Source: Laetiporus sulphureus 93-53
Taxonomy: Eukaryota > Basidiomycota > Agaricomycetes > Polyporales > Laetiporaceae
Direction: 5' to 3'
DNA: 64,000 bases
Assembly: GCF_001632365.1 (NCBI RefSeq)
Contig: NW_024468604.1
Location: 3,520-67,519 of the forward strand
Shown piece by piece: positions 490 through 41,267 of the stretch (position 1 is the stretch's first letter; each line of letters begins with the position of its first letter). A program made the translations under genes and the position numbers. The notes beneath the pieces were generated by a model. It searched no databases. It saw nothing but the letters and a program-made list of their open reading frames with translations, and was not told the origin of the DNA.

Positions 490-1501
490 TCAATTTCCGA
501 GTAGATGCAGCAGATCAGGCTCCGCAACACAACCCGCCCTCGAGTTATGCACATGCCTCACCAGTGCGTCCCTGCGGCTAAAGCTCTTCATACAGCCGCC
601 TACCATCTTCGTGTCCCTGAACATATACCAGTCGTCCGGATTGCACACATCATAGAGGAACGCGTCCTTCAGCGGCACCCCGCAGCACACCCACTTCGCG
701 TAGCTCTCACTTGCCCGGTGCGTGTTCAGGTGCCGCCGCATATCCGGCACGCGCGTCTCCCTCTGGCTGTACCCGCACCCAAGTGGACACTCAAGCGAGC
801 GGCTCGCGGCGAACTTGGTGAGCATCTCGTCGAACTCTTGTTGGGTGATGTGGACCTGTGAGTTACGTGCGCTCGAGCTACGCCTCGACCTGACGGGAAG
901 CGACAGAGAGTATGGCGCTGGCGCAGATGGTGTTTTACGGGATGTATGGGTCGAGGAGCCATAATATGGGCCGCATCGGTATTCATGGGGACTGGTGGAG
1001 GACGCAGTAGAATCTCTCTCGATGGCGGAGTAGTCGGCGTCTTCAGTGTCTATCTCAGACTCGCCATCGTCGCTGTCATACAAAGAGACGGTCTGCCTCA
1101 GAAGCAGTAAGTTTTGTGACCTGCGCTCATCATCCTGTTCCTGACGTCCAGAGCTTCCGGGAATATGTGATTCGTCTTGCGGACAAGTACGAGGCTGCTT
1201 CACCCTAGTCAATACAATACACGGTGTGAACGGCTGAAACAGTCTCAGAGGAACAAAGGACGTACCGCCAGTAGCCGTTGTTCAACCAAGCACCAGGATT
1301 CGCCGCCTCAACCTCGGATACAGCGCTCGAATCGGCCTCCTCCATGTTGGTCCCCGACTCCTTGTCTGAGTCAGGGTAGAGCAGCGTGTCATCGTCAGAC
1401 GAATAGTCTGCCAGCGGCTTGAGGGAATGCGACGGCGAAGGCAGGAATGGTGGTTCGCAGAGCCCGCTCTCCTTCTCATCCTTCATGGGCGATTGGGACA
1501 T
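490..1501 (-). CDS. C2H2-like zinc-finger protein, copy 1
   Basis: Model: exons 1266-1501 and 490-1204 with a 61 nt intron (donor GTACGT, acceptor CTAG) that keeps frame; 316 aa. The N-terminal two thirds is Ser/Asp/Glu-rich and probably disordered. The last ~110 residues carry an unusual zinc-finger region: CPLGCGY...DMRRHLNTH, then a WVCCGVP segment, then GGCMKSFSRRDALVRHVHN...C, i.e. two C2H2-like fingers separated by a Cys-containing linker. This layout suggests nucleic-acid binding, but no specific function is recognised. The Met at 1501 is preferred because a TATA-like box (1631-1640, minus) lies ~130 nt upstream; an upstream Met at 1630 abuts that box. A clear paralogue (8929-9744) lies on the other side of three IRG genes, so the pair brackets the array. 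The zinc-finger region is certain as coding; the start is less so. Confidence 0.8.
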
Positions 1502-2398: not shown

Positions 2399-4028
2399 TC
2401 ACGGGTTTAGCTCGCTGTCCGGAAGCTGCATCATTCCTCCGAAAGTCATCCTGAATGCCGCACCGTCCTGGTATTCGAGCAACGACGAGGATGCTGGTGA
2501 ATCCTGCGCGACTGCAGGATAAACACTATGCGGAATCTCCTGCTCCAGGGGAGGAATACGGAGTGCCGCAGGTGAGGCAAGACGGAAGGGCACGTGGCGG
2601 GCCACTGTTCGCACCACATCGCGTATACCCCACCTGCTTTTGATGCGTCTGACCTGAGCTTCGAACATGAATTCCGCAATAAGATCAAGTTCGTCGTATG
2701 CATCCTTCGCCTCTTCTTCACGCATGATATGCCGTAGAGGCTCTCTATCAACGAGATAAACTCGCTGATTGGGTGATCCTGCATTTTGCAGGTTGTTCTT
2801 GACGCTCTCGCGCGTGTCCCACTCATGCTTCTTGATAGCCTCTTCCTTTGAACAGTCTTCTTCTTCCATGATGTTCCGAACGTGCTGATTCGTTTTCGAC
2901 CGCACGATATATGATGGTATGTTGAATCGCGCACAGTTTCGAATGAGGTCTATATCGATCTCCGTCATACGGTCGCCGATCAGGATGATGATGCAGTCGA
3001 AGATGTATAGGCCCTGGTCACTGAAGTACTGCTCCGCTGGCACGTTCAGCGTTCCTGCTCCCGGGATGTCATACCAAACGAAGGGGAGGCTGGCATCGGA
3101 ATCGTCGTAGCGGGTGATGGTGTCTGTGGTCTCCGTCGTGCCGACCGGGGCAGCGCCCGCATCGTTCTTGCGTAGGCCGCGGAGAGAGTTGATAAGTGAC
3201 GACTTGCCACTTCCCGCACCGCCGGCGACTGCAAAGTGGCAAAATCCTTCCTTGTAGCCCAAACGACGCAAGGTCTCTTCGAATTTATCTCGAGTGGGAA
3301 GAACGATGGGGTTGAACTTTTGTCGTAGCCTCCATTCCGCTCGCGACATTATTCTGTTAAAGAAACTAAAGCCCTTTGCATGATCCGCCTTGGTCATTGA
3401 GGCTTGGGCGTCTTGTGTTGTCCAGTCGTCCTGGTCCGTCCAGAACTCGTCTGACGTTGCCAAGTCTAGTAATGATCCGGCAGGGAACGCAGGCTCCAGT
3501 TCTATCTCGAGCCTTGCAAAGCCAATCAGCTTAGATCCTAAAGATATTCGGGAAGTTCGCTCACGGTTGCATATTGTCTCTCCCAGAGGTATGACCATGA
3601 ATATCTGTCTCATGTTCTTCCTTGCACTCCTGCTTCTGATTCTCAAGGCTGTCTGCCTGCCCATCTTCCGGCATCTCGTTGTCCTCCTTTCTCGTGCCCT
3701 CTGCCATCTCATTCTGATCGTCCGCATCGCGCATCTCGTCGCACTTCTCCGGCTCCTCGTGATGATCAGGCTCCTCCTTATTCTCGGGCATTTCGTTTGC
3801 CTCGTTGTGCTCGCCCTCCGCCATCTCATTATGTTCGTCTGCAACAAGCTGCTCGCCGGACTGTCGTCCCTGCTCTTGAGGATCCTGTTCTCCTGGTCTG
3901 TCATCTTCGTCTTTCATATGTTTCTTCATCTTCTCAAGTGTAGGGTTCTCCTTGACATCGTGTTTCTGTGCGCTGTTGCGAAATATTTCTCGAAGCCAGC
4001 CGGCCACACGGGATACAGTGTTGCCCAT
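2399..4028 (-). CDS. IRG-type GTPase 1 (acidic N-terminal domain)
   Basis: Model: exons 3565-4028 and 2399-3512, a 52 nt intron (GTGAGC...GCAAG with branch CTGAT), 525 aa. It starts MGNTVS, an N-myristoylation-type motif. Residues ~20-150 are a Glu/Asp/Asn/Met-rich low-complexity segment with repeated NEM motifs. The GTPase domain follows: G1 GGAGSGKSS (about residue 254), a G2-like GTTETT, G3 WYDIPGAGT, and a G4-like VRSK in place of TKxD. The motif order and the segment FDCIIILI..R.TEIDIDLIRNC match the immunity-related GTPase (IRG/IIGP) family, which includes vertebrate cell-autonomous defence GTPases. The ~70-residue tail after the GTPase domain is low-complexity and unlike the other copies. 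First of three tandem same-strand copies. The biological role in fungi is unknown; membrane attachment through myristate is inferred. Confidence 0.85.
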
Positions 4029-4892
4029 GATGATGATGACCACTTCTGAAAGGGTGAGTCTATGAAATCTATCGTTTCGCATTCGTTAGCACCTCAATCG
4101 CAGGTTTCAGGAACGAACCTTCGCTTGTTGACGGCGGGAGTGTAGTCGAAGCTTGAAGATACGATTGAAGGGCAGGTTGAGGGCACGCTAGGACTCCAAG
4201 ACCCTCTACCCCTGGCCACGTTGAATAGTGCAGGGCCCTGGCTGCCCCGAGTTCTTCATCTAGTATGCTTCGGGAAGCAGGGGTCTACTTCCAGCCGTGC
4301 TGTTGCCTCATGTCCGTATACCTCGACATTGTTTCTCGCGAGCGCTATTTGGTTGGTTCTGGAACAAGAAGTGATACACAGATATCATGCCATGCAAGAC
4401 AGATGAGCATAATATTCTGCAGTACGAACATGTAAGGAGAGTTAGCTTTATATTTTCCAGGCTCAAAAGCAATTTGGACGGCAGGGGATGACAAGCAAAA
4501 TTGTGAGTATCTGAAACCGCGTAGCCATCCTACATCATACTTGTAGTACAGCTTTGGATTCTGAGATCATCTCACCACAAATCGATCATCAAGACATGCG
4601 CGGAAAGGTGAGTACGGGTACAACTACATCCCGAAAGCAAGAGGGCAATTGAGCGGGACTCGAGAACTTGATCAGCTTGAAGACTATCTCTATGTTCGTG
4701 AGTCGCTGCTATTCGAGGTGCATCATAAACGTACACAAATACAGCGCGAATCATTCATCCCAATCGAATCCCGCGCCAAGCTCGTCTTCCGGCAATATGG
4801 CAGGATGTCCTTCAGTGGCCATCATAGGGCTTTGACTATGGGGCGAAGGCGGACTTCCTTGTGGATCTGGCCCAAAAACAATGGCCTTGAGC
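4029..4892. other. Intergenic between IRG 1 and IRG 2
   Basis: This holds the promoter side of IRG 1 and the 3' flank of IRG 2. I see no separate gene. Confidence 0.4.
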
Positions 4893-6182
4893 TTATCGAG
4901 TGACACCGGGACACGAAAGTGGGCAGATGAGGGATGCCAACGTTCGTATCATTTCTTGTGCATCCTGCTTGCTCCGGGATCGTCTTACCCGAGCCTCGGC
5001 CAGCAGTTTAACGAGGAGATCGTACTCGTCAAATGCTTCTTTTGGCTCATCATCCTGAACGATGCTGCGCAGGCTCTCGCTGTCAACCAAGTAGACCCGC
5101 TGCTTGTCTAATCGCGCACGCTGCAGGTTGTCTACGACATCCTTGCGCGTCTGCCGTTCAAGCGTCTTGCGGGCTTCCTCCCTTGAGCACCTACTCCTTC
5201 TTTCCTTCATGATGTTTTGGATATGCTGCGTCGCTTTAGACCGCACGATGTACGACGGGATCACGAACTGCGAACAGTTGCAGATAAGGTCTATGTCAAT
5301 CGTGGTGACGCGATCGCCAATGACGATGACAATGCAGTCGAAGATATATAGACCTTGATCAATGAAATATCGTTCCGCTGGCACGTTCGATGTCCCGGCG
5401 CCTGGGATGTCATATCATACAAAGGGAAGACTTGGATCGGGGTCATCATAGCGGGTGATGGCCTTGGTGGTCTCGTTCGTGCCGACTGGAGCAGCGCCAG
5501 GATTCCCCGCGTAAAGGCCGCGGAAAGAATTGATAAGTGACGACTTGCCGCTCCCTGCAGCGCCTGCGACTGCAAAATGGCAAAAACCTTCCTTGTAATT
5601 CAGGCGCTGCAAAGTCTCTTCGAAGGCCTCCTGAGTAGGAAGGATGACCGGATCGAGCTGTTGTTGCAGGCTCTTTTCCGCTCGTGGCAATATAGTATCG
5701 AAGAAGTGCCGGACCTTTGAAATATTCTCGATGGCCACAGTAGCTTCAGAATCTGTGGAGCACAGGCTTGCCGAGTCGGTCTCTGAGTCCTGTGTCATTG
5801 TATCTTTGGCCTTCGCGAACGCTGGATCCAATCCTGTTGGCTGCTCGACGTGCTCTTGAGAGAGGGTTTGCTCTTGTGTGGCGTCATTAATTCTGGCTCA
5901 CTGATCAGCAAGTCAACATCAGGCTGGCTTAGAAACTCACAGTGCCGTTTGGTTTTGTCCCGATTGTCCCGAGAGCCACTCAATGTGAGCGCTTGCCTTG
6001 CGCTTGGGATTGGGCTGCTGTTCCCTTTTGTGGTCTTCCTGCTTGTACTGATATCCCCCTGGATTTTCCATGCGTACTATCATATTATCCATCGTCGCAT
6101 TGTTTCCCATGTTGCCCTCCTTTCCATCGCGCCGGAAATCGTCGCGGAGCCAGCGGGCGATAGAGGATAACACATTGCCCAT
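4893..6182 (-). pseudogene. IRG-type GTPase 2 with in-frame TGA in the G3 motif
   Basis: Model: exons 5941-6182 and 4893-5892, a 48 nt intron (GTGAGT...GCCAG, branch CTGAT), 414 codons. The start is MGNVLS, again an N-myristoylation-type motif. G1 is GAAGSGKSS (about residue 193) and the G2-like segment is GTNETT. Where all relatives have Trp-Tyr-Asp in G3, codon 5415-5417 is TGA, a one-base change from TGG. The frame then continues intact for ~170 codons (YDIPGAGT, FDCIVIVIGDRVT, YIVRSK, QRVYLVD). No other break is visible, so the lesion looks recent, or the stop is read through, or it is an assembly error. The only GT...AG pair around the stop would give a 22 nt intron, too short to be credible. 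Confidence 0.8.
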
Positions 6183-6740
6183 TGCGATTTGCAATCGATC
6201 GCTCCAAGACGTTGAAGATATGTGCCGCGATGTCTGTCCAACGATCTTGGTCAATGCATCACTCGCAGACCGAAAAAGTGAATACTGAGCACCGGACGTT
6301 CACTTGTCCAAGGCGGTGAGCTGGTATTGCTTGACGAGATAGGACTGTCGTTCAACAGAGGTGGATGCTCCGAGAACCCTGGCAGTTGGTCACGTTGACC
6401 TGCGGCTTGCGACTCACCGTCCCGTGCTATCAAACCTTATACACTAGATTTGTACATGGGTGTCGTTCGCGCTGTTCCCCAGCCTTAGACGTAACCCAAT
6501 GCAACCCAAATACCTCGCACACAAACCCGTCACAGTAGATAGAAACCAGCTCGATGTGCTGAACTCATCTGAGACTCCGATAGTGGTACAAAGAGCATGA
6601 CAATCGGCCATCGATCACCATAGACTGTAGAACACTGCCTGCAGGGATTAGCTGACCGCAAGTGCCCTTCAAGACAAAAACTTATGTCCATGAATCGGCG
6701 AGGAAATGCGCTTCTTGCGCCACATGCCCTGAATTCCAGC
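6183..6740. other. Intergenic between IRG 2 and IRG 3
   Basis: Promoter region of IRG 2 and 3' flank of IRG 3. No gene or repeat is supported. Confidence 0.4.
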
Positions 6741-8051
6741 TCAGTCAACGGTCAGAATACGGAGTACCTCCCTCAGTCGCGCCTGGAACTCCGGGGCTCG
6801 GATTCTCCTCACGTGAGTGTCAAGCATGAGGTCTCGTACGAACTCAAGTTCGTCGATCACGTCCGGAGCAGGTTTTCTTGCATACAACTTGAGGTAATTC
6901 TTCGTATCGACGAGATAGACTCGCTGCTCTGGCAGTTGCGCTATGAGCAGATTGTGTTTGATACTATCGCGAGCGGTTGTGACATACGTCTTCCGCGCCC
7001 GTTGTATGAGCACTCCGCGTTTCTCCTCGTCCTCATCATCGCTGTCCTCCGCGATATCCTGTATGGTGTTCTCGATGCGCTGTAAGGATTTAGGGCGCAC
7101 GATGTACGTGGGTATATTATAGAGGGAAGCATTTTGCATAATGGCAATGTCGATCTCGGTGATTCGCTCGCCAATCACGACGATGATGCAGTCGAAGATG
7201 TAAAGGCCCTGATCATTGAAGTATTGCGCTGCAGGAACTGTGAGGGTGCCTGCTCCAGGTATGTCGTACCAAACGAATGGTGTGTCCGGATTGGAATCGG
7301 GGTAGCGACCGATCTCGAGAGTGGTTTCCGTCGAGCCGGTGGGAGCTGCGCCGTCCTGTCCATTTCGCAGGCCACGCAAAGCATTGATTAGCGATGACTT
7401 TCCGCTGCCTGCAGCACCTGCAACTGCAAAATGGAATTTGCCTTCTTGATAGTCGAGTCGAAGGAGCGCCCTGTCGAATTCTGCTTTGCTAGGCAGAACA
7501 GTCGCAGTCGGCACGGATCGCCCTTTCGCCTCCGCTTTCTTGAGTAGCGATTGCAGATCTTCCTGCCACTGAGCAGGACGGCGACTCTCTTCGCGAACTT
7601 CCGTCATCTCGACATTTACCTCAGGCTGGTCGCGGATCGGATCCTCCTCATGATTCGAATCCCCCGTTTCCAACCTTCTTCTGAGCCATATCATGGTCGG
7701 GCTCTCGTCTGGTCCTCCTCCAGGCCGCGGCCACAATATTGTCAAGATCAAAACTATCGCGCACCCCGCGATTGACCCTGGGATGGCAGCCAGCAAGCCT
7801 GCGGCAGCAGCACCCTCCGCGGCAGTAAAAGCTCCTGCAGCGACACCTCCAGTAGTCATTCCTCCTATCAACGAAAACAGTGCGCTGTATGTCGCACAAG
7901 ATTTCGACGACTCAATCGCTACTAAGCAACCTGAGATGTACGCGGCGACTTACGCAGCCTGAGGAACTGCATGGCTTGAGGCATATCCGAAGACTTGTGC
8001 GACTTGCGGGCCCACATAGGACGCTAACGGCGCGGACATGAGCACACCCAT
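6741..8051 (-). CDS. IRG-type GTPase 3 with membrane segment
   Basis: Model: exons 7954-8051 and 6741-7884, a 69 nt intron (GTAAGT...ACAG), 413 aa. The first exon starts MGVLMS, an N-myristoylation-type motif. Residues ~33-80 are Gly/Ala-rich and then strongly hydrophobic, with the run IVLILTIL, so a transmembrane or hairpin segment is likely in addition to the lipid site. The GTPase domain has G1 GAAGSGKSS (about residue 192), a G2-like GSTETT, G3 WYDIPGAGT, a G4-like VRPK and a C-terminal QRVYLVD strand. It lacks the long charged coiled coil of the later copies. Third gene of the tandem minus-strand set. Confidence 0.85.
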
Positions 8052-8928
8052 CTCCACTATGGGAGGACAGTTCTGCCTGTAATCCTGCACTGAGCGGGTG
8101 AGGCTGACTGGGAGATGATGAGAAACGCGATGAAAGAGATTGCAATTGAATGTGAATGAGGTGAACCCATCGGCCATCACCGTGCGGTCCGTGCCTCGTG
8201 CATGTTGTGACACTCTCACCTGCCATATAAAGGGCGCGAGCCTCAAGCAAGGTTAAGAAGTCAAGACGCCCACGAGTGTCGAGCTCGAATCGTTCATGAA
8301 CCATCCTTTAATGCACTGATATATAGTCTAGCTGTGCTTTCGCAGATAACACTCACTGATGGAGCCCGTCGGTCTTCCCGCGGCCAGTCAATTCCTGATG
8401 CTATTTATATAGGCGAGAATCCAAACGGTTTGGTGTGTTCTGCCAAGCCGTCACATGCAAGGTTCCCAGATGCGCTACATTCAAAATTGGAGCGAAGGAG
8501 TCGAGCAGGACCTGAGGAACACGACGACTGTCAATTGGCACATGATAAGCACACGTAAAGCCCTTGATGTGTACGGTGTTCTCACCTGCGATTGCAAGTT
8601 TCGCGAGTCTGTGGCGCAGAACTGACATTGCACTTAAGAATCCTACGGAATATGCAATATGCTGAATTGCGTGGAGAGATAGCTCGATATTGCTAATATA
8701 TATATAAAATCAATGCAACAATCCAGCACACCATGATATACGAGGAAACTGTGATGCTACAGACGTTCGTCCTAAGGAACCGAAACTTGAGGTTGTCTAG
8801 CGCGTGAGAGTGTGAAACGAACGACACAAGTCATTGCAATGTTCGACACCGATGCGTTACAAACGTCTGATACTTAAAGTCAGACTGCGCGAAGCGGAAT
8901 ATATATAGGGTGACAACTTACCTGCAGA
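8052..8928. other. Intergenic, no gene seen
   Basis: AT-richer stretch with a TATA-like run near 8696-8708. No open frame with a recognisable product; it separates IRG 3 from zinc-finger copy 2. Confidence 0.4.
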
Positions 8929-9744
8929 CTACTTGTTTTTCTTCTTCTTGCGTGGCTCTTCCTCATCTTCAAGCAGGACCTCACCTACGCACGGGATCTT
9001 CTTGTTACGCACATGCCTATCGAGCGAATCGCGCCGAGCGAAGCTTTTCTGACACCCGCCAGTCATCTCCATTCCATCGATCGTGTATATATGCTTTACA
9101 GCCTTGATCCCAAATAGTTTCGCTTGCGCGACGGGTACGCCGCGACACACCCACATATTGCGAGCGTCTGCAGAGTGTGTCTTGATATGCCGTTTCATAT
9201 CCCCTAGACGCCGGCTCGACTGCTTGAAGCCACAGCCGACTGGACAATGTGTCGATTGGCTCGTAGTGAACTTCTGGAAGAGCGCTTCGAGTTTCTGGTG
9301 GTCGAGAGACACCTGCTCGTTTCGGGCACGCGAAGCATATGATTCAGGGCTGACGGAACGGGAAGGAGGAGCAGAGGAAGGTGGGCGAGAGGCGGTGCGG
9401 GTCGATGCAACTGAAGGCGGGCGAGAGGCAGTGCGGGTAGATACAAGTGAAGGGGAAGGAGCACGCGATGTGCGAGACGATGAAGCATTACGATAGGGAT
9501 GATAGCGGCGGATGCGGGACTTTTGAACCCGTGCGAGTCGGGTGGGGAAGAATTCATCCTCGCTGGATTCCTCTTGCTTCGTGCGAGTCGCTTCCGATTC
9601 GTCCTCGGATTCCGCATATGAATCGGGAGTATCACGGGTCCTACTGACATACCGCGCGGTCTGTTGTCCAGGCCGGACTGATGTGGTGAGACTTTGCCGA
9701 GAAGTAGACCTGTAGCACAGAACTATCAATGAACTACGCCCCAT
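8929..9744 (-). CDS. C2H2-like zinc-finger protein, copy 2
   Basis: Single-exon model of 271 aa from the ATG at 9742-9744. The C-terminal part aligns with copy 1: CPVGCGF...DMKRHIKTH, WVCRGVP, GGCQKSFARRDSLDRHVRN...C, then an acidic stretch and a Lys-rich tail. The middle has short Ser/Arg/Pro repeats (three STRTASRPP-type units). An alternative start uses an upstream exon (from about 10050, ending 9884) spliced into 9709. That join keeps frame and mirrors the intron of copy 1, and a TATA-like box sits near 10052-10065, but no in-frame ATG follows the box. The DNA-binding C-terminus is secure; the 5' end is not. Confidence 0.75.
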   Translation of the reverse strand: MGRSSLIVLCYRSTSRQSLTTSVRPGQQTARYVSRTRDTPDSYAESEDESEATRTKQEESSEDEFFPTRLARVQKSRIRRYHPYRNASSSRTSRAPSPSLVSTRTASRPPSVASTRTASRPPSSAPPSRSVSPESYASRARNEQVSLDHQKLEALFQKFTTSQSTHCPVGCGFKQSSRRLGDMKRHIKTHSADARNMWVCRGVPVAQAKLFGIKAVKHIYTIDGMEMTGGCQKSFARRDSLDRHVRNKKIPCVGEVLLEDEEEPRKKKKNK

Positions 9745-11165
9745 CGTTTATCAGATAGACAAAGATATTATGTTCATCGCAACGCCTGTAACCACTGAGG
9801 TCTGCAGCATTTGAGTTCAAATTGGTACGTATATGAACGGGCACGTTCCGGAAATGGCTCGAATGCAAATTAAAGGAACCTACCTCAGACCCGATCCACG
9901 GAGACCAGTGGGAAAGTTCGATGGTCCGCTTAGGGCCGCCTGTGATCCCTCTGAATCGGGCCCGTCTGCCTCGTTTGCTTCATCGTCCACTCGTGTGGCA
10001 CGCAGGTCGGAGTCGCGCTGGCTTGAATTGACCGACCGCTGAGCATTGTCTGCTGTATAAATATGCCTTGTGGAAGGCCCCGGGCCTTTACCCCGTTGAT
10101 CTGTGTCCCAGCTTGTCCCGAATGCCAAGTGGTAGCGATGCTTGAAGAAAGCTATGCGACAAGCGAGAGGAAGTGATAACTCGAATGAGAATGAAAGCCT
10201 GGATGCAGCTGAAGATAGATCGTACTGCGCATGAACTGTGCTAATGGCCCAGCGTGTAAATGGACGACAGAGGTTTTGCAACAGACATAGACGTTCGACG
10301 TTCACTGTTCAGTGGCAAGTGGCGTTGTTTAGCGCCCGACGTTGTGGCGAGCACGTTGGGCTTTGCCGCATGGTGTGGCCGCGCACGGGTTTCGCTACAA
10401 CTTGACGAACGAGCCACCGCATCTGGCGTACTACGTTTCGCCTGCAATGGCACTATTCAGAAGGTCGATAACGAACGATGCAGTCCATCGCAAACTCCGA
10501 GCTTGGATGGGTATTGCGAGTGGCACCGGCTATGTGCACCACGTGGAATTTCGGTAGAAAATTCCGTTCAAGCTTGACATGGCACTCTCAAGTCCTTAAT
10601 CGAAACTTTGCTGTGCGTATATACGTTCAGATTTGTGGACGTGCATGGGCTGCCGTACCCGTTCTGAACATCGGAAATAAAGTTGTCAGACATTTTTCAG
10701 AGTTAGCACGGCGCAAAGACGGCAATTTTGACGAGTATTGCAGGGCAGAACACTTTCATGTGCATGTCAGCTTTATCGGACCGCAACGCGTATTACGGTA
10801 CTGTAGCTATACAGGATGAGCTACGCACGAGCGAGCGTACGCGAAATGTCCAAGGTCTTGAAGTGCTACATACTAGAAAGGCAAGATGACATATGATGAA
10901 GTCCGACACATTCCGCAAGCTGATCATCCGAAGAAGTGAATGATACAAGATACGAAACTTCGAGCTAGAGGCAATCTTCGCGTACATCATCAATATTGAG
11001 AAAAACCTGTAGAAAGAAGTCTCGGCCGAGGTAACGCCTGGCATCACGTTTGGTCAATCATGAATGCAAATGGATCGATACCACGTCGGTTCAATTCATC
11101 TGATGCCCAGGTCAATCAATAAGTCTTCTCAAAGCTTCCCATCGTCGATCATGTTTTTCAGCTTC
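9745..11165. other. Intergenic; possible 5' exon of zinc-finger copy 2
   Basis: 9884-10050 may be an upstream exon of the zinc-finger gene on the minus strand. The rest (10300-11165) shows no recognisable coding sequence on either strand. Confidence 0.35.
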
Positions 11166-11640
11166 TTATCCTGTGAGGTAGACTCGTCGACTCGGGAGCC
11201 AACGTCGGCAAAATTGAAAGCAACACTTCCATGCGTATGCGTATGCGTGATGTACTTGTCGCAATCTGTTTATTCGCACCGATGGCCTTGACTGCACGAT
11301 GCACTTCGGAACGTTTCGGAGGCGTTCGCAGTCTCGTAAAATCTCGATGTCGACCTCCAATGAATGTCTGTCGAAGAGGACAACGATGCATTTGAATACG
11401 TAAAGCCGTTGATCGTTGGAGTAAAGCTCCGGGAATCGTTAGGGTATGGTTCCTGGAGTATCATAACAGACAAACGGGCGAGCGGAACCGAGGTTGTAGC
11501 CATAATGAGCGCAATGCATCGTAATCTCCATCGTACCATTCAGCATCGCCCCTGGATCACTGTTGCAAAGACCGTGCAGGGCACTTATCAGAGGTGACTT
11601 CGTTCCTGTGCCAGCAATGGCGATATGAATCTTGGAAGTT
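11166..11640 (-). pseudogene. Decayed IRG-type GTPase relic (4)
   Basis: Reading the minus strand from about 11635, the frame shows a worn G domain: a G1 remnant with GTGTKSPL in place of the family's G.AGSGKSS, a following LISALHGL, then FVCYDTPG for the G3 region, then TAA directly after the G3 motif, then YVFKCIVVLFDR and EVDIEILRDCER for the family's FDCIIVLF.R and TDIAILRNCER. The G4 region is also altered (IVQSRP for YIVRSK). No N-terminal exon or C-terminal domain can be placed. It lies between the intact copies in the same orientation, so it is a dead member of the tandem array. Confidence 0.8.
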
Positions 11641-12180
11641 GCACCTCTTCGTCAGTCAGTAGGAAGAATGATGGATTTGCGCGGTCACCACATGCTTACC
11701 TCTGCCAGTCTTAATATTCTGAGTCTTCGCCGCGAAGTGTTTCCAAACATAAGCTTTATGCCTCGTGATACTTGGATATCTGGATCCTCAGGCCTCAGAT
11801 CTCAGCTTTAATGATACATCAGAACGTTCCTCCTACTAGGTAAAGGTTGTGAAAACGCCGGACGTCAGTTGATTTACCATTTCGCGACTGTGTACTTGGT
11901 CGTGACAGAACTAACATGATGCTGATGCGACGTACGACATCTGATTAACACAGTATAAGCGTACATATCGAGCAAGATATATTGACGAGCGCGAGCGCAG
12001 ACAAACATCACGCAATGCAGGATGCGTGTACACGATCATGAAAGTCAGGACAAGTATACATCATGCATGAAAAAGCATACAAACTTTGATGAGAAACATA
12101 TAGCAGATTGGCACATACCCGGAACCGCAAAAATGCAGGAAATGGCCTTATACAGAGTTCATAGCGTAAGACGTACCGTG

Positions 12181-13656
12181 TCAACCTCGGGCAACAACAG
12201 AGCGGGAACGGCGGAGACGGGCCTCGGCGAGAAGATCCCTGAGTAGAATCCACTCGTCGATGGCCTTCGGAGGCTGACGGCCCTTGATTACTTGCGCCAT
12301 CGTCTCCTTGTCCACGAGATAGACCCTCTGCGGGGGCAACTTTGCTTGTTCAAGGTTCCGCAGGACGCTCTTGCGGGTCTCGAGGTCGTACTGCTCCCGC
12401 GCGCGCGCCCATTTGGCTGCCTCCGAGCCCAGGGTCTTCCCCTCCACTTCCTCATCGTCCAGGGTCTCATCCTCCTCCTCCTCATCGTCCCACTCCAAGT
12501 CCTCCATGACATTGCGAATGTGCTGGAGGGACTTGGAGCGTACGATGTAAGCTGGAATATTGAAACGCTCGCAATTGCGAAGGATCGCGATGTCCGTGTC
12601 GGTGAACCGGGCGTCGAAAAGCACAATGATGCAATCAAAAACGTACAATCCCTGAGCGTTGAAGTACACGAAGTCGGGGATTTTCAAGGTACCAGCGCCC
12701 GGAACATCATACCACACAAACGGGTTCCGAGAGTCGGGGTCGGGGTAACGAGTGATAACACTCGTGGTCTCGGTAACGCCTGTGGGTGCGGCGCCGGCGC
12801 CACGATGTTTGTTTCTCAAGCCGCGGAATGCGTTGATGAGTGAGGATTTGCCGCTGCCGGCAATTCCAGCGACCGCGAAGTGGAATAAGCCCTCTTGATA
12901 CTGCAGACGCTTCTTGGTTGCGTTATACTCCTCCATTGTCGGAATGAGGACGGGCTTGATCCCCTTCCGGACGTTTCGCTGCACCTCCTCGAGCTGCTCC
13001 CTTGCCTCCTGGGCCACCTTGTCTGCTGCAGCCCTAGCTTCCTCCGCCCTCTTCCTCTCTTCCTCAGCATTCCTACGTTCTTCTTCAGCGCATCTCTTTT
13101 CCTCTTCCGCTTTACGCTGTCCTTCTTCGGCACGCCTGGTATCCTCTTCGGCCTTCCTCCTGGCCTCATCGGCCAGCCACTTCTCATGCTCCGCCCTCCG
13201 CTGGCCCTCCTCAGCATTATTGCACTCTTCCTCCGTCTTCCTGGCTTCTTCTTCGGTCTGTCTGCGTCTCTCCTCAGCATCTCGTTGTTGAGTCTCCGCC
13301 CACTGCCTCGCCTCTTCCGCCCTCCGTTTCTCCTCCTCGGCCCTCCGAGCATCCTCTTCAGCCCTGTGTTGAGCCTCCTCTGCCCGCCGCCGCTCTGCTT
13401 CTCGCTCACGGGCCTCGTTCTCGGCCTTCCTGCGCTGTTCCTCTGCCTGTCGCTTTTCTTCCTCCGCACGCCACTTCTCCGCCTCAGCTTGCTCCCTCTT
13501 TCTCTGTTCTTCTCGGATGCGCTCTTCTAACTCCTCCGTCACGGGATTGCGCGCGATGGAACCGGAAGACGAGTCGGACCGGAGACCTTCGATCAAGCCG
13601 ACGACAGCACCGATGAGGTCTGTCGCGACGGCGATGACAGATTCGACTACTCCCAT
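12181..13656 (-). CDS. IRG-type GTPase 5 with long charged coiled coil
   Basis: Single coding exon, 491 aa, from MGVVES (N-myristoylation-type motif). An earlier pair of in-frame ATGs (13681-13686) is probably removed: a 78 nt 5'UTR intron (13661-13738, GTAAGT...ATCAG) ends 4 nt before the chosen ATG. Residues ~5-25 are hydrophobic. Residues ~45-240 are an almost uninterrupted Glu/Arg/Lys/Ala heptad-like repeat (AEEEKRRAEE type), a long coiled coil or single helix. The GTPase domain has G1 GIAGSGKSS (about residue 265), a G2-like GVTETT, G3 WYDVPGAGT (about 314) and a G4-like VRSKS. An acidic DDEEEE loop comes next, and the chain ends near ARLRRSRS. The organisation suggests a membrane-tethered GTPase on a helical stalk. 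Confidence 0.88.
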   Translation of the reverse strand: MGVVESVIAVATDLIGAVVGLIEGLRSDSSSGSIARNPVTEELEERIREEQRKREQAEAEKWRAEEEKRQAEEQRRKAENEAREREAERRRAEEAQHRAEEDARRAEEEKRRAEEARQWAETQQRDAEERRRQTEEEARKTEEECNNAEEGQRRAEHEKWLADEARRKAEEDTRRAEEGQRKAEEEKRCAEEERRNAEEERKRAEEARAAADKVAQEAREQLEEVQRNVRKGIKPVLIPTMEEYNATKKRLQYQEGLFHFAVAGIAGSGKSSLINAFRGLRNKHRGAGAAPTGVTETTSVITRYPDPDSRNPFVWYDVPGAGTLKIPDFVYFNAQGLYVFDCIIVLFDARFTDTDIAILRNCERFNIPAYIVRSKSLQHIRNVMEDLEWDDEEEEDETLDDEEVEGKTLGSEAAKWARAREQYDLETRKSVLRNLEQAKLPPQRVYLVDKETMAQVIKGRQPPKAIDEWILLRDLLAEARLRRSRSVVARG

Positions 13657-13660
13657 ATGA

Positions 13661-13738
13661 CTGATTGGACGAATGTTATTCATCATTGACGTGAGATACG
13701 ATGTAAGATATGGACTTTGGCAGTAGCTTCACACTTAC
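13661..13738 (-). other. 5'UTR intron of IRG 5
   Basis: GTAAGT donor, TAAC-type branch and ATCAG acceptor, 78 nt. Removing it deletes the upstream ATGs and makes the MGVVES codon the first start in the message. The duplicated gene at 16198 has an equivalent 53 nt intron with the same acceptor position. Confidence 0.6.
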
Positions 13739-13858
13739 AGGTAGCAGATGATTGAAAACAGGCAAGCGATGCGAACGATGACGGGCGGGGATGGCAGGGG
13801 AGCAAAGAGGTACGTCGAATGGTGAGGGCGCTGATCATGCCAGGGACGCGCATTCCTG

Positions 13859-13867
13859 TATTTAAGA
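13859..13867 (-). promoter_or_regulatory. TATA-like box, IRG 5
   Basis: The minus strand reads CTTAAATAC about 120 nt upstream of the 5'UTR intron donor. The equivalent site in the duplicate gene is at 17701-17710. Confidence 0.35.
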
Positions 13868-13920
13868 GCACGGGCACGTGTAGTAGGCATGTATCGCGCG
13901 CAGAATCTCGTCATCTTTGG

Positions 13921-14431
13921 AGAATACTGGGACAATGGATCTGCGATCGCGTAGATTGAATACAGAGCGCTGATAAGATAATCTGCCGTCGGCTCTGATC
14001 GCGTTCTGCCCCGATCTGCCAAAACTACTATTGTAGCAAATCTCATTGGTCCATTCCAATTTTGTCTGTACTTTTGTCCTGGATTAAACCCGATGTGTCC
14101 GGCCTTGCCTCCCGTTCTTTAACAATTTATATACCGCCGAAGGCGGTCGAGGGTGTGGCTAAGTACATGGCATATCGCAGGATTACGTAGGTAGGGACGG
14201 GGGTGGGGTGATACAAGCGACCACGACCGGGACAGAGCCTATCCGGGTGTGTAGGTCCAGGCATCGCTGCCTCGGAGGAAGGCGTTCAGCCCTCCCGTGT
14301 CGTACGGTATATCTCCTGTCCTCCCCGCACTCACAAAAGGAGATTTATAGGTCTACCTAGGGGAGACAACGTGTCGCGTCTCCCACGCAGCACTCACCGT
14401 CCCGACGTCGTACATCGTGTCGTGACATACC
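13921..14431. other. Promoter region of the iron permease
   Basis: No gene is visible. It contains a TATA-like TTTATATA run near 14126. I could not identify a specific iron-regulatory site with confidence. Confidence 0.4.
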
Positions 14432-15962
14432 ATGGGCAAGAGCGTCTTCTCCGTGCCTATCTTCTTCATCGTCTTTCGTGAGACCCTCGAGGCGGCCATC
14501 ATCGTCTCCGTCCTGCTCGGTCTTGTCGAGCAGATCGTGAAGGAGAGCGACGGCACGGCGCTTGGCTTGGCGGAACCCAATGTGCAGGGGGAGTCGGGTA
14601 ACGCAGAGCACGAGGAAAAGCAACACTCTCATTCTGACACGGCTTCATCGACACAGCAAGACGATGCATCTGCACCTGAGCTTCTGGTCGAGCCCGACCG
14701 CGACCTCGCGATGAAGCGGCTGATGCGCAAGATGCGGCTGCAGATTTTTTTTGGTGCTGTTCTCGGCCTGATCATTGCAGCTGCTATCGGTGCTGCTTTC
14801 ATCGCCGTCTGGTTCACCCAAGCGTCCAACTTGTGGTCAAGTACGGAGGGACTGTGGGAAGGTAGGAAGACGCATGCTACCCAGAGAAAAGCACTCTGCT
14901 CACCGGTGCTGCCCTGCAGGTATTTTCTCGGTCGTCGCAGCGATCATCATCTTCGTTATGGGCGTTACCATGCTCAAGATGGACCGCGCAAAAGCAAAGT
15001 GGCGCATCAAGCTACTCAACGCGTTCTCTGGCAAGCGTACGTCTGCCATTATGCCTAACCGTCACATTGTCTGCCAGCTGACTTGCCACTTCTTCACTTT
15101 CAGGCGTGGACAAGTCGACTCGTGCCGGCCGCTGGATGCTGTTCATCCTGCCGCTTATTACCGTCTTGCGTGAGGGCATGGAAGCTGTCGTCTTTGTCGG
15201 TGGTGTGTCGCTCGGACAGAGTGCCACCGCGATTCCGATCGCTGCTATCGTCGGCTTCGTTTGCGGCATCGTCTGCGGATACCTCATTTATGCATTTGCC
15301 AGTCGCACGAGTGAGTTTTTAGTATTCAACGTATGAGAAACGCGTAATTGAACTCGCGCCTCCCCAGCATTGACGATATTCATGGTTGTGATGACGAACT
15401 TCATTCTCCTCATCGGTGCCGGACTGTTCAGCAGGGGTATCTGGGACTTTCAGCAGCAGCACTTTGACAACATGTATGCACACCCTCCAAGATATTTTTG
15501 CCCTCACTGTACAACTGTTTTTCTTTCTCTTCATAGCGTCGGTAAAGAGGTCGGCGACACAGGAGGCGACGGCCCGGGATCGTTCGATGTACAAGGAAAT
15601 GTCTGGCATCTCGACTGCTGTAACCCCAATAACGACTTCGACAGCGACGGCTGGTCAATTTTCTACGCCATCTTCGGTTGGACGAACAGTGCGACGATGG
15701 GAAGCGTCCTCTCCTATGTTTTCTACTGGCTCGCCGTAATTGCCGTGCTGATTTACCTCAAGTTCAAGGAGGTCTGTATCTTGTTTACCGCATTCTTCGC
15801 GGCGAATTCTGACGTGTGACGTTTCGCTGTTTCTAGGGTCGCACGAAGCTGTTGGGCAAGGAGAGCGCTGCAGGCGTGCGTCGCCGGGAACGTCAGGAAA
15901 GGCTCGCGCTCGAGGCGGAGGACGAAAAGACCAGCAAGCTGGAAGAGGAAGTCATTGCATGA
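14432..15962 (+). CDS. FTR1: High-affinity iron permease, Ftr1 family
   Basis: Exons 14432-14861, 14920-15036, 15104-15310, 15368-15473, 15537-15771 and 15837-15962 give 406 aa with frame kept at every junction. The protein has about seven membrane segments and two REXXE-type iron-binding motifs: RETLE near residue 17 in the first helix and REGME in the fourth-exon-side helix followed by AVVFVGGVS. A Glu/His/Ser-rich cytosolic loop (about residues 45-90) and a Lys/Glu-rich C-terminal tail are typical. Ftr1 normally works in the plasma membrane with a multicopper ferroxidase (Fet3) that oxidises Fe(II) to Fe(III) for transport. No ferroxidase gene is adjacent here, unlike the divergent FTR1-FET3 pairs of many fungi. 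It is the only non-IRG gene inside the duplicated block pair and reads against its neighbours. Confidence 0.93.
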
Positions 15963-16197
15963 GGACTGCAGCGGTAGACAAGCGTACATATCAATCAAGA
16001 TATATTGACGAGCGCCAGCACAGACAACCATCACGCAATGCAGGATGCATGTACACGATCACGAAAGGCAATACAGCATACATGAAAAGGGTATGCAAAC
16101 TTTAACGAGAAATGTTTAGCAGATCGGTACACACCCGGAACCGCAAAAAATGCAAGAGATGGCGTTATACAGAGCTCATGGCGCAAGACGTACCATG

Positions 16198-17487
16198 TCA
16201 ACCTCGGGCAACAACAGAGCGGGAACGTCGAAGACGAGCCTCGGCGAGAAGATCCCTGAGTAGAATCCACTCGTCGATGGCTTTCGGAGGCTGACGGCCC
16301 TTGATTACTTGCGCCATTGTCTCCTTGTCCATAAGATAGACCCTCTGCGGAGGCAACTTTGCTTCTTCAAGGTTTCGCATGACGCTCTCGCGGGTCTCGA
16401 GGTCGTACTTCTCCCGCGCGCGCGCCCATTTGGCTGCATCGTCCAGGGTCTCCTCATCCTCCTCCTCATCGTCCCACTCCAAGTCCTCCGTGACATTGCG
16501 AATGTGCTGGAGGGACTTGGAGCGTACGATGTATGCTGGAATATTGAATCGCTCGCAATTGCGAAGGATCGCAATGTCCGTGTCGGTGAAGCGAGCGTCG
16601 AAAAGCACAATAATGCAGTCAAAGACGTACAAGCCCTGAGAATTGAAGTACACGAAGTCGGGGATTTTCAGGGTACCGGCACCCGGAACGTCATACCACA
16701 CGAACGGGTTCCGAGAGTCGGGGTCGGGGTAGCGAGTAATAACACTCGTGGTCTCGGTAACGCCTGTGGGTGCCGCGTCACGGTGACTGTTTTTCAAGCC
16801 GCGGAATGCGTTGATGAGCGAGGATTTGCCGCTGCCGGCAATTCCAGCGACTGCGAAGTGGAACAGGCCCTCTTGATACTGCAGGCGTTCTTTGGTTGCA
16901 TGATACTCCTCCAGTGTCGGAATGAGGACGGGCTTGATCCCCTTCCGGACGCTTCGCTGCACCTCTTCGAGCTGCTCCCTCGTCTCGTGGGCCACCTTGT
17001 CTGCTACAGTCCTAGCCTCCTCTGCCTTCTTCCTCTTCTCCTCAACATTTTTAAATTCATCTTCAGCCCGTCTCTTTTCTTCTTCCGCTTTGCGCTGTTC
17101 TTCTCCGGCGCGCCTGGTATCCTCCTCGGCCTTCCTCCTGGCCTCATCAGCCAGGTTCTTCTCGTGCTCCGCCCTGCGCTGACCCTCTTCAGCATTCCTG
17201 CGCTCTTCCTCCGTCTTCCTGGCTTCTTCTTCGGCCTGTCTGCGTCTCTCCTCAGCATCTCGTTGTTGATTCTCTGCCCGCTGCTTCGCCTCTTCCGCCC
17301 TCCGAGCGTCCGCCTCAGCCTGCTCCCTTTTCTTCTCTTCTTTCCGCATGCGCTCCTCTAACTCTTCCATCACGGGATTGGGTGCGATGGAACCAGAGGA
17401 CCAGTCGGACCGGCAAGCTTCGACTAACCTGGTGACCGCAAACACGAGGCCTGTCGCTACGACGAGGACAGATTCGACTACTCCCAT
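16198..17487 (-). CDS. IRG-type GTPase 6, duplicate of IRG 5
   Basis: Single coding exon, 429 aa, starting MGVVES. A 53 nt 5'UTR intron (17492-17544, GTGAGT...ATCAG) removes two earlier in-frame ATGs. The GTPase and C-terminal parts are nearly identical to IRG 5: G1 GIAGSGKSS (about residue 217), a G2-like GVTETT, G3 WYDVPGAGT, VRSKS and the QRVYL strand. The difference of 62 residues comes from a coiled coil shorter by about 49 residues and an acidic loop shorter by about 13. The repeat-rich stalk is therefore the fast-changing part while the catalytic domain is conserved. The 3' flank is also duplicated. Confidence 0.88.
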   Translation of the reverse strand: MGVVESVLVVATGLVFAVTRLVEACRSDWSSGSIAPNPVMEELEERMRKEEKKREQAEADARRAEEAKQRAENQQRDAEERRRQAEEEARKTEEERRNAEEGQRRAEHEKNLADEARRKAEEDTRRAGEEQRKAEEEKRRAEDEFKNVEEKRKKAEEARTVADKVAHETREQLEEVQRSVRKGIKPVLIPTLEEYHATKERLQYQEGLFHFAVAGIAGSGKSSLINAFRGLKNSHRDAAPTGVTETTSVITRYPDPDSRNPFVWYDVPGAGTLKIPDFVYFNSQGLYVFDCIIVLFDARFTDTDIAILRNCERFNIPAYIVRSKSLQHIRNVTEDLEWDDEEEDEETLDDAAKWARAREKYDLETRESVMRNLEEAKLPPQRVYLMDKETMAQVIKGRQPPKAIDEWILLRDLLAEARLRRSRSVVARG

Positions 17488-18472: not shown

Positions 18473-18693
18473 GAATAGTAGGCTCGAGCTAATACCAGGG
18501 GGTCCAGTGAGAAGTGTACCCGTGGGAACGCCGAGTTTGAACATGCCGCCGCCACCGCCACAACGCGACCACGCGACCAGAGGACGCGCCTCAGGCTGAG
18601 CGTGTCTTCCTGCATACTCCTCGTGTCGCTCAATGCTAGCATGACGTTCGTTAACGCATTCATACGGTCAAAGTCCTGTCTAAAGTAGCAAAT

Positions 18694-19508
18694 ATGTCTG
18701 AACCTGCTCAGTCTTCTCTCGGCGACCCTCAAATCAACGCTGAATGGCTTGCTGAGCTGTTCTCTCAAAAGTGTGGGATCTCGCAACCGCAAGAATTCCA
18801 GATCAAACACGGACTAGACATCATTGAAGGACGCAAGGTATTTCTAGTTATTGCACCAGGTCAGGGCAAGACGACAGTCTTCTGGGCCCCTCTACTCGCA
18901 GCTCAAGCACTCGGTGAGCGAGGCGTCGCGTTATACATTGTCCCTACCAAGCTACTTTCTATACAGCAGGTACGATATCTCTGCTGGATTCACACACAGA
19001 AATAAAGAGCTATGTATGGCTTGATTTACCAGAGCGAGAGTGCCCGTCGAGTTGGGCTGCGCGCGATCGCGCTGAACGAGGATACTGTCCGCGACGCATA
19101 CTACGACAAGCGCGATCTTTACGACGAGCTGCAGAACGGTAAAGATGTCCGCATCACTTTCCTGAGCCCTCAAATGCTTGCTGGAGAACGCATGATGAAG
19201 CTCCTGCGAATATCTGGCTTCAAAGACCTGATCCGCTGGTTCATGATTGATGAGGCTCACTTGCCCGATGACGAGAGCCCTCTCTGGCGCGAAAGCTATT
19301 CTGTTCTCAAGACGATGCGTGCGCGGCTGAACTCCAATACAACCTGGGTTGCTGTGACCGGTACGGCTACTTCTGGTCATGCTCTCAAAATTGCGGCAGG
19401 TCTTGGCTTTCGGCAAGGGCAGTACGTGAACGCTCGTTACTCCATTGACTGCCCGCATATCAAGTACATCACTCGCTTCTTTATGCACCCATTCTCTGGC
19501 TCCGAGTT
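18694..19508 (+). pseudogene. Truncated RecQ-like DEAH helicase
   Basis: Exons 18694-18969 and 19033 onward, with a 63 nt intron (GTACGA...TTACCAG). The N-terminal ~250 residues of a superfamily 2 helicase are clear: a Q-motif-like FQIKHGLDII, motif I APGQGKTT, motif Ia YIVPTKLL, motif II DEAH and motif III TGTATS. Similarity stops near 19508 just before the second RecA-like domain, so motifs IV-VI are absent and the frame runs to a stop at 19563 through unrelated sequence. The sequence after the break reads as coding-like on the opposite strand. Partial RecQ-type helicases are common in fungal repeats and subtelomeres. It is not expected to be active. Confidence 0.75.
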
Positions 19509-39947: not shown

Positions 39948-41267
39948 ATGGGCGCTGCCGTGTCGATAGTTGTTGCTCTTGCAGGAGCCGTCGGCAGTAT
40001 CATTAACATCGTCAACGCGATTCGCTCTTCCGCCGCGTCTGGAGGGATTGCGCCCAACCCGGTCATGAAGGAGCTTGAGGACCGCGCAAAGAGGGAAAAG
40101 GAGAGGGCTGAGGAGGCCGAAAGAGCGAGAAAGCACGCAGAGGATGCGAAGCGCAAGGCGGAGGAAAGTGCGCGAAAGAATGAAGAGGAAAGGCGTAAAG
40201 CGGAGGACGCGAAATGCAAGGCGGAGGAAAACGCGCGATGGAATGAAGAGGAAAAGCGCAACGCGGAGGACGCGAAGCGCAACGCGGAAGAGCAGCGCAA
40301 AAAGGCGCAAGAGGAACAGAAGAAGACCGAGGAAGAGCGGAAGAAAGCAGAGGAGGATAAGAAAGCAGCCGAGCAGGCGAAAAGGCGCGCAGAGGAGGCG
40401 ACGAAGAAGGCGGAGGAGGACAAGGCCGCGGCAGAAGAGCAAGCCCGTCTGCTGAACGAGCAGATCAGAGAGATACAGAAGGGCATCGCGGAGGGCATCA
40501 AGCCCATCATTAGCCCAACCCTGGAGGAGATCCTCGAGACGAAGGCGCGTATCGAGTATAAGGACGGCATATTCCACTTTGCTGTCGCTGGCGTCTCTGG
40601 TAGCGGCAAGTCCTCGCTGATCAACGCCCTGCGCGGTGTGAAGAATAGAAAGCGTGGTGCAGCGCCTGCTGGTGTGACCGAGACGACGAAGACGATCACT
40701 CGTTATCCTGATCCCGACCGCCGCAACCCATTTGCGTGGTACGATGTCCCCGGTGCCGGAACCCTCGAAATCCCAGACTTCATCTATTTCAAAGCGCAGG
40801 GCCTGTACGCCTTCGATTGCATCATTGTTGTTCTCAATGATCGCTTCACGGACACCGACATCGCGATTCTGCGCAACTGCGCGCGCTTTAACATCCCGAG
40901 CTATATCGTCCGCTCAAAGTCTCTCAACCACATTGACAACCTGGTGGACGACATGCCATCAGACGATGACGAGGATGATGACGAGGATGATGACAGCGAG
41001 GACGAGGCCACCGAGGACAAGGCTGCAAAGTGGGCCATGGCGCGAGCGCAGTACGAACGAGTGAGCCGCAAGAGCGTCGCAGACAACCTCAAGAAGGCCG
41101 GGCTCGCCGAACAACGGCTATACCTCGTGGACAAGCGCACGATGATTCGGGTTCGCAAAGGCCGCCGGCTGGCGGAGGCAAAGGTGATTGATGAGGTGGA
41201 TCTATTGAAGGACCTCCTCACTGGGGCATACTCTCGACGCACCGCGTCGTCCTCTGCTAGAGGTTGA
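39948..41267 (+). CDS. IRG-type GTPase 7, coiled-coil class
   Basis: Single coding exon, 439 aa. It starts MGAAVS (N-myristoylation-type) followed by ~22 hydrophobic residues. Residues ~40-175 form a Glu/Lys/Arg/Ala coiled coil (KAEEERKKAEEDKKAAEQ type). The GTPase domain has G1 GVSGSGKSS (about residue 218), a G2-like GVTETT, G3 WYDVPGAGT (about 264), FDCIIVVLNDRFTDTDIAILRNC, a G4-like VRSKS, an acidic DDDEDDDEDDD loop, and a QRLYLVD strand. It is the same class as IRG 5 and 6 but clearly diverged. It lies 22 kb away from the array on the opposite strand, behind a tandem repeat, so it moved or is an older copy. Confidence 0.9.
   Translation: MGAAVSIVVALAGAVGSIINIVNAIRSSAASGGIAPNPVMKELEDRAKREKERAEEAERARKHAEDAKRKAEESARKNEEERRKAEDAKCKAEENARWNEEEKRNAEDAKRNAEEQRKKAQEEQKKTEEERKKAEEDKKAAEQAKRRAEEATKKAEEDKAAAEEQARLLNEQIREIQKGIAEGIKPIISPTLEEILETKARIEYKDGIFHFAVAGVSGSGKSSLINALRGVKNRKRGAAPAGVTETTKTITRYPDPDRRNPFAWYDVPGAGTLEIPDFIYFKAQGLYAFDCIIVVLNDRFTDTDIAILRNCARFNIPSYIVRSKSLNHIDNLVDDMPSDDDEDDDEDDDSEDEATEDKAAKWAMARAQYERVSRKSVADNLKKAGLAEQRLYLVDKRTMIRVRKGRRLAEAKVIDEVDLLKDLLTGAYSRRTASSSARG

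What the first reader, a model, noticed from the sequence alone, without database searches (positions are those of the whole stretch)
2399..17487. Tandem array of IRG-type GTPases in a fungus
Five genes plus a relic (and a seventh copy at 39948) share the IRG motif order: G1 G.AGSGKSS, a G2-like G.TETT, G3 WYD[IV]PGAGT, FDCII..., TDI.I..NC, and a C-terminal QRVYLVD strand. In vertebrates IRGs are cell-autonomous immunity GTPases that vary greatly in copy number. Duplication, pseudogenes, N-terminal divergence and repeat-length change in one 15 kb block look like a birth-and-death family under conflict, as expected for defence or non-self recognition genes. This could be an uncharacterised fungal innate-immunity system.
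Basis: partly seen in the sequence, partly recalled or inferred. Interest (0 to 1): 0.88.

Follow-up and report, generated by a model that had tools for sequence, protein, structure and literature searches.

The report
Fungal IRG-type GTPases, myristoylation-tagged and expanded
A bracket fungus carries a cluster of genes whose switch domain is closest to that of mouse infection-fighting IRG proteins and whose start carries the same membrane-anchoring signal, so it may use a related machine on its own membranes, though no function has been tested.

Summary
Confirmed and extended. The window is from Laetiporus sulphureus 93-53 (Polyporales). The block holds five IRG-type G-domain genes (one broken by an in-frame stop), a relic, and a further copy at 39948; the genome has 15 copies plus the relic. 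Sequence and predicted fold place the G domain with vertebrate IRGs, ahead of other GTPases. (1) The family carries the MGxxxS N-myristoylation signal, as eleven mouse IRGs do: Ser6 in 55 of 61 non-redundant MG-starting members. (2) The IRG C-terminal helical domain has no counterpart; instead an N-terminal heptad-phased Ala/Glu/Arg helix of variable length separates the lipid signal from the G domain. Two IRG G-domain hallmarks also differ: the G4 Asp is missing in all 15 L. sulphureus copies, and the Ras-Gln61 position is mostly Ala. Copies in this and some other species cluster by species, duplicate and decay, with a G domain under purifying selection. Databases already name such genes 'IRG-type'; nine literature searches, several of them capped lists, showed no paper on them. 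Best reading: lipid-anchored, nucleotide-switched membrane GTPases, a new architectural variant of the IRG kind, plausibly used in cell-autonomous conflict. The immune role is inference.

The parts
2399..4028 (-). Gene W1 (LAESUDRAFT_764951, P0121, 525 aa): MGNTVS start at 4028, first exon to about 3567, G domain (P-loop 3197-3223)
   Evidence: IIGP 91.3 bits; NCBI model P0121; positions
4893..6182 (-). Gene W2, broken: MGNVLS first exon from 6182, intron, P-loop 5538-5564, in-frame stop just before G3
6741..8051 (-). Gene W3 (LAESUDRAFT_576400, P0143, 413 aa): MGVLMS start, Gly/Ala-rich hydrophobic N-terminal segment, P-loop 7392-7418
   Evidence: IIGP 77.7 bits; P0143; positions
11259..11636 (-). 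Relic of a family member: degraded P-loop and G3, stops in frame
   Evidence: E 1.6e-18 to W1; translation
12181..13656 (-). Gene W5 (491 aa from MGVVES; NCBI model LAESUDRAFT_816722 starts further upstream), long heptad helix, P-loop 12841-12867
   Evidence: IIGP 66.9 bits
16198..17487 (-). Gene W6 (429 aa from MGVVES), duplicate of W5 with 49 fewer residues in the helix, P-loop 16819-16845
   Evidence: IIGP 73.5 bits
39948..41267 (+). Gene W7 (P0043, 439 aa): MGAAVS start, hydrophobic helix, 63-bp-period coil repeats at 40140-40288, P-loop 40590-40616; folded by AlphaFold2
   Evidence: 82.5 bits
490..1281 (-). C2H2-like zinc-finger ORF downstream of W1; possible linked partner
   Evidence: paralogue of 8929-9747 and of C49:265953-266468, beside a C49 IRG-type group
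8929..9747 (-). C2H2-like zinc-finger ORF upstream of W3; possible linked partner

Best explanation
These are genes for lipid-anchored membrane GTPases built on an IRG-type G domain. Shown from sequence or model: an MGxxxS N-myristoylation signal; behind it, in many members, a hydrophobic helix or a basic patch; then a long heptad-phased helix of variable length; then a conserved IRG-type G domain with a median of 45 residues after its last strand; clustered copies that duplicate and decay in this lineage while the G domain stays under purifying selection. Inferred: the N-terminus is myristoylated and holds the protein on a cell membrane; the helix is a spacer or oligomerisation arm; nucleotide binding drives G-domain dimerisation across the nucleotide face, as in Irga6, and the oligomer deforms or marks the membrane; the family's turnover reflects conflict, most likely cell-autonomous defence against bacteria, viruses or mobile elements inside hyphae, or against a non-self partner after hyphal fusion.
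Confidence: 0.5

Rival explanations
1. Membrane-trafficking or developmental GTPases: myristoylated, helix-spaced GTPases that remodel or tether the fungus's own membranes (vesicles, septa, mitochondria), with copies gained and lost by drift or dosage and no role in defence.
For: Purifying selection in both the G and pre-G regions of the C49/C3 copies; small one-to-one sets and no species clustering in Fomitopsis, Daedalea and Rhodofomes; mitofusin and bacterial dynamin-like GTPases are the next membrane folds; Pfam scans of window members showed no fused partner domain.
Against: Species-wise expansion in L. sulphureus, Postia, Wolfiporia and Bondarzewia, a stop-broken copy, a relic, and change of N-terminal anchor type between close paralogues are unusual for a housekeeping machine.
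Confidence: 0.3
2. Allorecognition or regulated cell-death effectors: a membrane-inserting N-terminal helix released by nucleotide-driven oligomerisation of the G domain after fusion with a genetically different mycelium.
For: 29 of 61 non-redundant MG-starting N-termini carry a hydrophobic helix near the start; the anchor type varies between close paralogues.
Against: 10 of 61 have a basic patch and 22 of 61 neither, so membrane insertion is not general; no sensor domain seen and no polymorphism data.
Confidence: 0.12
3. The IRG label is only a P-loop resemblance; the proteins belong to another TRAFAC GTPase family such as EngB/YsxC, GIMAP or a small GTPase.
Against: IIGP scores 67-91 bits in the same genes; IRGs lead the sequence and fold searches; the AIG1 profile has no match over cut-off in the genome.
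Confidence: 0.04

Closest known systems
Vertebrate immunity-related GTPases (IRG/p47; Irga6, Irgb6, Irgb10; Pfam PF05049)
   Same: G-domain sequence and fold; MGxxxS signal, carried by eleven mouse IRGs according to Bekpen 2005 (PMC1297648, passages); clustered genes with continuing duplication.
   Different: No C-terminal helical domain: Irga6 chains align to residues 255-258, Irgb6 and Irgb10 rows to 242-284; the median tail after the last strand is 45 residues. Long N-terminal heptad helix. Ala at the Ras Gln61 position in 158 of 176 rows and no G4 Asp in L. sulphureus. No interferon in fungi (recalled).
Database entries 'IRG-type G domain-containing protein' / 'interferon-inducible GTPase-domain-containing protein' of mushrooms
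   Same: Same family: the named hits among the 120 listed of 791 and 120 listed of 572 are from genera such as Fomitopsis, Postia, Suillus, Pisolithus, Armillaria, Bondarzewia and Jaapia, all Agaricomycetes (classification of genera other than Laetiporus recalled).
   Different: Names look automatic; nine literature searches listed no functional or architectural description.
Mouse tandem IRG units (Irgb2-b1, Irgb5-b4)
   Same: 46 of 167 fungal models hold two IRG-type G domains in one protein; Bekpen 2005 describes in-frame tandem transcripts (passages).
   Different: All 46 are NCBI-sourced models and none of the 49 proteins with lgn, jgi or ena sources only is double, so many may be fused predictions. 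No window copy is double.
Mitofusin and bacterial dynamin-like GTPases
   Different: Sequence identity 11-17% in those rows and no match in the PDB sequence searches.

Membership tests
Vertebrate IRG (immunity-related GTPase) | Matches the IIGP profile over the curated cut-off | tested here: met
   15 of 15 genomic matches over cut-off; the copies were found with this profile; window ORFs 36-91 bits, cut-off 24
Vertebrate IRG (immunity-related GTPase) | G domain closer to IRG structures than to any other GTPase | tested here: met
   PDB sequence searches; Foldseek on the W7 model and VIA-align on two models
Vertebrate IRG (immunity-related GTPase) | G domain flanked by N- and C-terminal helical domains | tested here: not met
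   After the last strand an 8-residue helix and one of 17 or 25 residues, plus a 5-residue end helix in W7; Irga6 aligned to residues 255-258 only; tail median 45 residues in 142 of 177 rows, 35 without the strand motif not measured
Vertebrate IRG (immunity-related GTPase) | Large hydrophobic residue at the Ras Gln61 position | tested here: not met
   Ala 158, Ser 16, Glu 1, Thr 1 of 176 rows; the Gln is likewise absent
Vertebrate IRG (immunity-related GTPase) | G4 motif TKxD | tested here: not met
   Asp in 80 of 172 family rows, 0 of 15 L. sulphureus copies; the position aligns with the Asp of TKxD
Vertebrate IRG (immunity-related GTPase) | MGxxxS myristoylation signal (a subset of mouse IRGs) | tested here: met
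   Sequence signal only: 55 of 61 non-redundant MG starters have Ser6; 6 of 6 window genes and 12 of 15 genomic copies, with an in-frame Met further upstream in W5, W6 and c49a. Lipid attachment not tested
Vertebrate IRG (immunity-related GTPase) | Clustered genes with lineage-specific duplication | tested here: met
   not so for four Fomitopsis-group species
Vertebrate IRG (immunity-related GTPase) | GTP-dependent oligomerisation and cooperative hydrolysis | not testable with these tools
   needs purified protein
Vertebrate IRG (immunity-related GTPase) | Induction by infection and loading onto pathogen vacuoles | not testable with these tools
   no expression or imaging data
GIMAP / AIG1 GTPases | AIG1 profile over cut-off | tested here: not met
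   One sub-threshold match on C1 in the genome, none at the IRG-type loci; not listed for the window ORFs at E up to 1

The most novel reading that the evidence does not exclude
Agaricomycete fungi run a cell-autonomous immune system on a re-engineered IRG machine: myristoylated, rod-spaced GTPases, with the lever moved from the C-terminus to the N-terminus and relaxed guanine specificity, that assemble on membranes of intracellular intruders or non-self compartments, with copies turning over in each species under conflict. It would be an independent deployment of the IRG module outside animals.
Probability: 0.33. Interest if true: 0.87.

Novelty: new variant of a known kind. Interest (0 to 1): 0.64.

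Why it matters
IRGs are known as a vertebrate resistance system; Bekpen 2005 reported no unambiguous homologue outside vertebrates (passage). A large fungal family with the same G domain and the same N-terminal lipid signal but a different mechanical arm would show which parts of the IRG machine are essential, and would give mushroom biology a concrete, deletable candidate for intracellular defence. The family lies in wood-decay and ectomycorrhizal genera, many of them culturable (recalled), so the idea can be tested directly.

Tried and rejected
Prokaryotic, viral or plasmid relatives as a source: 590 pattern matches in genome contigs and 358 in viral contigs, none confirmed by tblastn; no plasmid match. 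These scans reach close relatives only, so a distant origin is open. NCBIfam gave only matches far below its cut-offs and PADLOC only weak P-loop or coil matches, E 2.7e-5 at best.

Telomere-linked cluster: no exact (TTAGGG)3 in the assembly, so position relative to chromosome ends could not be judged.

Zinc-finger partner in other species: the homologue search returned one protein (ENA source, 98% identical over 65% of the query), so conserved linkage could not be tested.

Built-in dimers (two G domains in one protein): 46 of 167 models, but none of the 49 proteins with lgn, jgi or ena sources only (hand count; Fisher p 5e-9 on hand-entered counts), and one Rhodofomes double model (P0003) corresponds to two separate models (P0051, P0075) of that species. 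Not used as evidence.

Whole-heptad length changes of the helix: Ala-Ala pairs are enriched at lag 7 (1.66) and lag 14 (1.50); 31 of 55 helix lengths are 1 mod 7 but many are related rows; over 25 distinct lengths p = 0.02. Supportive, not strong; other moduli also deviate for the 55 rows. Gap lengths in aligned repeats (49; 7, 7, 35) can be an alignment effect.

Family-wide conserved NP motif behind the N-terminal helix: found in 57 of 94 MG starters, so only partial.

Literature: nine searches for fungal or non-vertebrate IRG-type GTPases; a tenth was on Irga6 myristoylation. Searches listed everything they found (1, 1, 3, 2 and 1 papers, none on the subject); some searches listed only 25 of 98, 15 of 141,439, 15 of 887 and 15 of 3,383, so they are weak as evidence of absence. 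PMC1297648, PMC4774019 and PMC8565484 were seen as passages only; all other papers only as search listings. The library lacks most subscription journals.
Full report
Identity of the window. It lies in a 38.6 Mb, 124-contig genome. Protein P0001 (LAESUDRAFT_816722) sits on a contig of 69,390 bases, the length of the window's contig C95, and names the organism Laetiporus sulphureus 93-53: Polyporales, Agaricomycetes.

What is there. Genes W1, W2, W3, W5 and W6 lie on the minus strand between 2399 and 17487, a relic at 11259-11636, and W7 on the plus strand at 39948-41267. The genome holds 15 IIGP matches, all over the cut-off: 6 on C95, 7 in three groups on C49, one each on C3 and C8; 0 of 14 control genomes match. 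W2 carries an in-frame stop just before the G3 motif behind an otherwise readable first exon and intron, and keeps its MGNVLS start. The relic has a degraded P-loop and stops. W5 and W6 are a local duplicate: two stretches of 1388 and 508 bases align at 87% and 76%, reaching some 0.2 kb beyond the coding sequence at each end. An FTR1-type iron permease gene lies between them.

G-domain chemistry. Over 139 rows (37 rows dropped because the cutting pattern failed; the pattern requires GKSS, so P-loop invariance there is by construction) the last Thr of ETT, the G3 Asp and the Arg and Lys of RSK are invariant. In the hand-picked 53-row alignment the P-loop Lys is invariant too. So nucleotide binding looks constrained. 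The Asp of the G4 motif, which gives guanine specificity in classical GTPases (recalled), is present in 80 of 172 rows and in none of the 15 L. sulphureus copies, where the position is Leu, Asn, Arg, Lys or Thr (of double models only the first domain was counted, and P0001 and W5 are one gene). The Ras Gln61 position is Ala in 158 of 176 rows; vertebrate IRGs have a large hydrophobic residue there (Bekpen 2005, PMC1297648, passage).

N-terminus. All six window genes have an MGxxxS start: MGNTVS, MGNVLS, MGVLMS, MGVVES twice, MGAAVS. W5 and W6 also have an in-frame Met upstream and NCBI's model of W5 begins further upstream, so their start is likely rather than certain. In the genome 12 of 15 copies show such a start (c49a too has an upstream Met); c49b, c49g and c8 do not. 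Across two homologue searches (791 and 572 hits; the 120 best of each available, 167 distinct proteins), 88 of 154 M-starting proteins begin MG and 83 of those have Ser or Thr at position 6, against 76 of 348 internal glycines. After removing rows at least 50% alike over residues 7-36, Ser6 is found in 55 of 61, while positions 3-5 and 7-16 are variable (binomial tail 6e-30; kinship of rows is not fully removed). Bekpen 2005 gives MGxxxS as the myristoylation signal of eleven mouse IRGs and reports that Irga6 is myristoylated (passage). An NMT gene is present in this genome. Near the start, 29 of 61 N-termini have a hydrophobic helix, 10 a basic patch, 22 neither, by my thresholds. Among close paralogues the type changes: c49d is hydrophobic, c49c and c3 basic.

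Helix. Between N-terminus and G domain lies an Ala/Glu/Arg-rich helix with heptad phase (Ala lag-7 enrichment 1.66) and length 106-240 in 51 rows. W5 and W6 differ by 49 residues in it. Coil, single helix or oligomer cannot be told from these data.

Evolution. On a quick tree of 67 G domains (68 rows given, W2 empty; P0032, P0079 and P0161 lacked a usable domain) the 14 L. sulphureus rows need 2 label changes against 12.9 in shuffles and 8 Postia rows (several annotations pooled) 2 against 7.7; Wolfiporia (4) and Bondarzewia (4) are one clade each. Against this, Daedalea, Rhodofomes, F. schrenkii and F. betulina rows are no more clustered than shuffles, with some one-to-one sets. A single L. 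sulphureus clade is not rejected (p-AU 0.785), nor a single Postia clade (0.63). Long branches (c8, c49g, W3) make finer order unsure. dN/dS is 0.10-0.17 in the G domain of nine of nine pairs and 0.13-0.42 before it in the eight pairs where it could be computed; dS is about 0.2-0.3 for W5/W6 and about 0.7 to over 2 for the rest, so those ratios are rough. The copies look maintained; pairwise averages cannot exclude positive selection at single sites.

Neighbours. Two C2H2-like zinc-finger ORFs flank W1-W3, and a third of nine matches to that family in the genome lies at C49:265953-266468, about 2 kb past a C49 group of IRG-type genes and on the same strand. This could be co-duplication of a block or a functional pair.

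Mechanism. Shown: signal, helix, G domain, turnover, constraint. Inferred: lipid anchoring, nucleotide-driven dimerisation across the nucleotide face as described for Irga6 (PMC4774019, passages), membrane deformation or marking, and a role in conflict. The defence role is the weakest link; a trafficking role is the main rival.

Membership. The G domain is IRG-type. The canonical IRG build is not met (C-terminal helical domain, Gln61-position residue, G4 Asp). I therefore describe an IRG-type G-domain family of fungi with its own architecture, and do not file it as IRG proper.

Noticed in passing
window 490-1281 (-), 8929-9747 (-); L016:471-1487 (+) (C49): C2H2-like zinc-finger genes beside IRG-type clusters on two contigs: three of nine matches to this family in the genome lie there, in the same orientation as the neighbouring IRG-type genes. 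The protein search for the family gave one hit, 98% identical, ENA source.
   Followed up: partly
P0002-P0049 in part, P0080, P0122, P0123 (fungal homologues): 46 of 167 homologue models contain two IRG-type G domains, recalling the tandem IRG transcripts of mouse; none of the 49 proteins with lgn, jgi or ena sources only does, so many may be fused predictions.
   Followed up: partly
window 6741-8051 (-); L009:1681-2274 (+): W3 and c49a have a 45-50 residue Gly/Ala-rich hydrophobic N-terminal stretch that looks like a membrane hairpin; no Pfam match lies in that stretch of W3.
   Followed up: partly
L009:1681-2933 (+): Copy c49a has its N-terminus and helix in one frame and its G domain in another; intron or frameshift not resolved.
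   Followed up: no
window 14426-15819 (+): FTR1-family iron permease gene between the duplicated W5 and W6.
   Followed up: partly
window 18655-19005 (+): DEAD-box helicase fragment next to the cluster.
   Followed up: partly
window 61818-62918 (+): Copia-type gag ORF with zinc knuckle at the right end of the window.
   Followed up: partly
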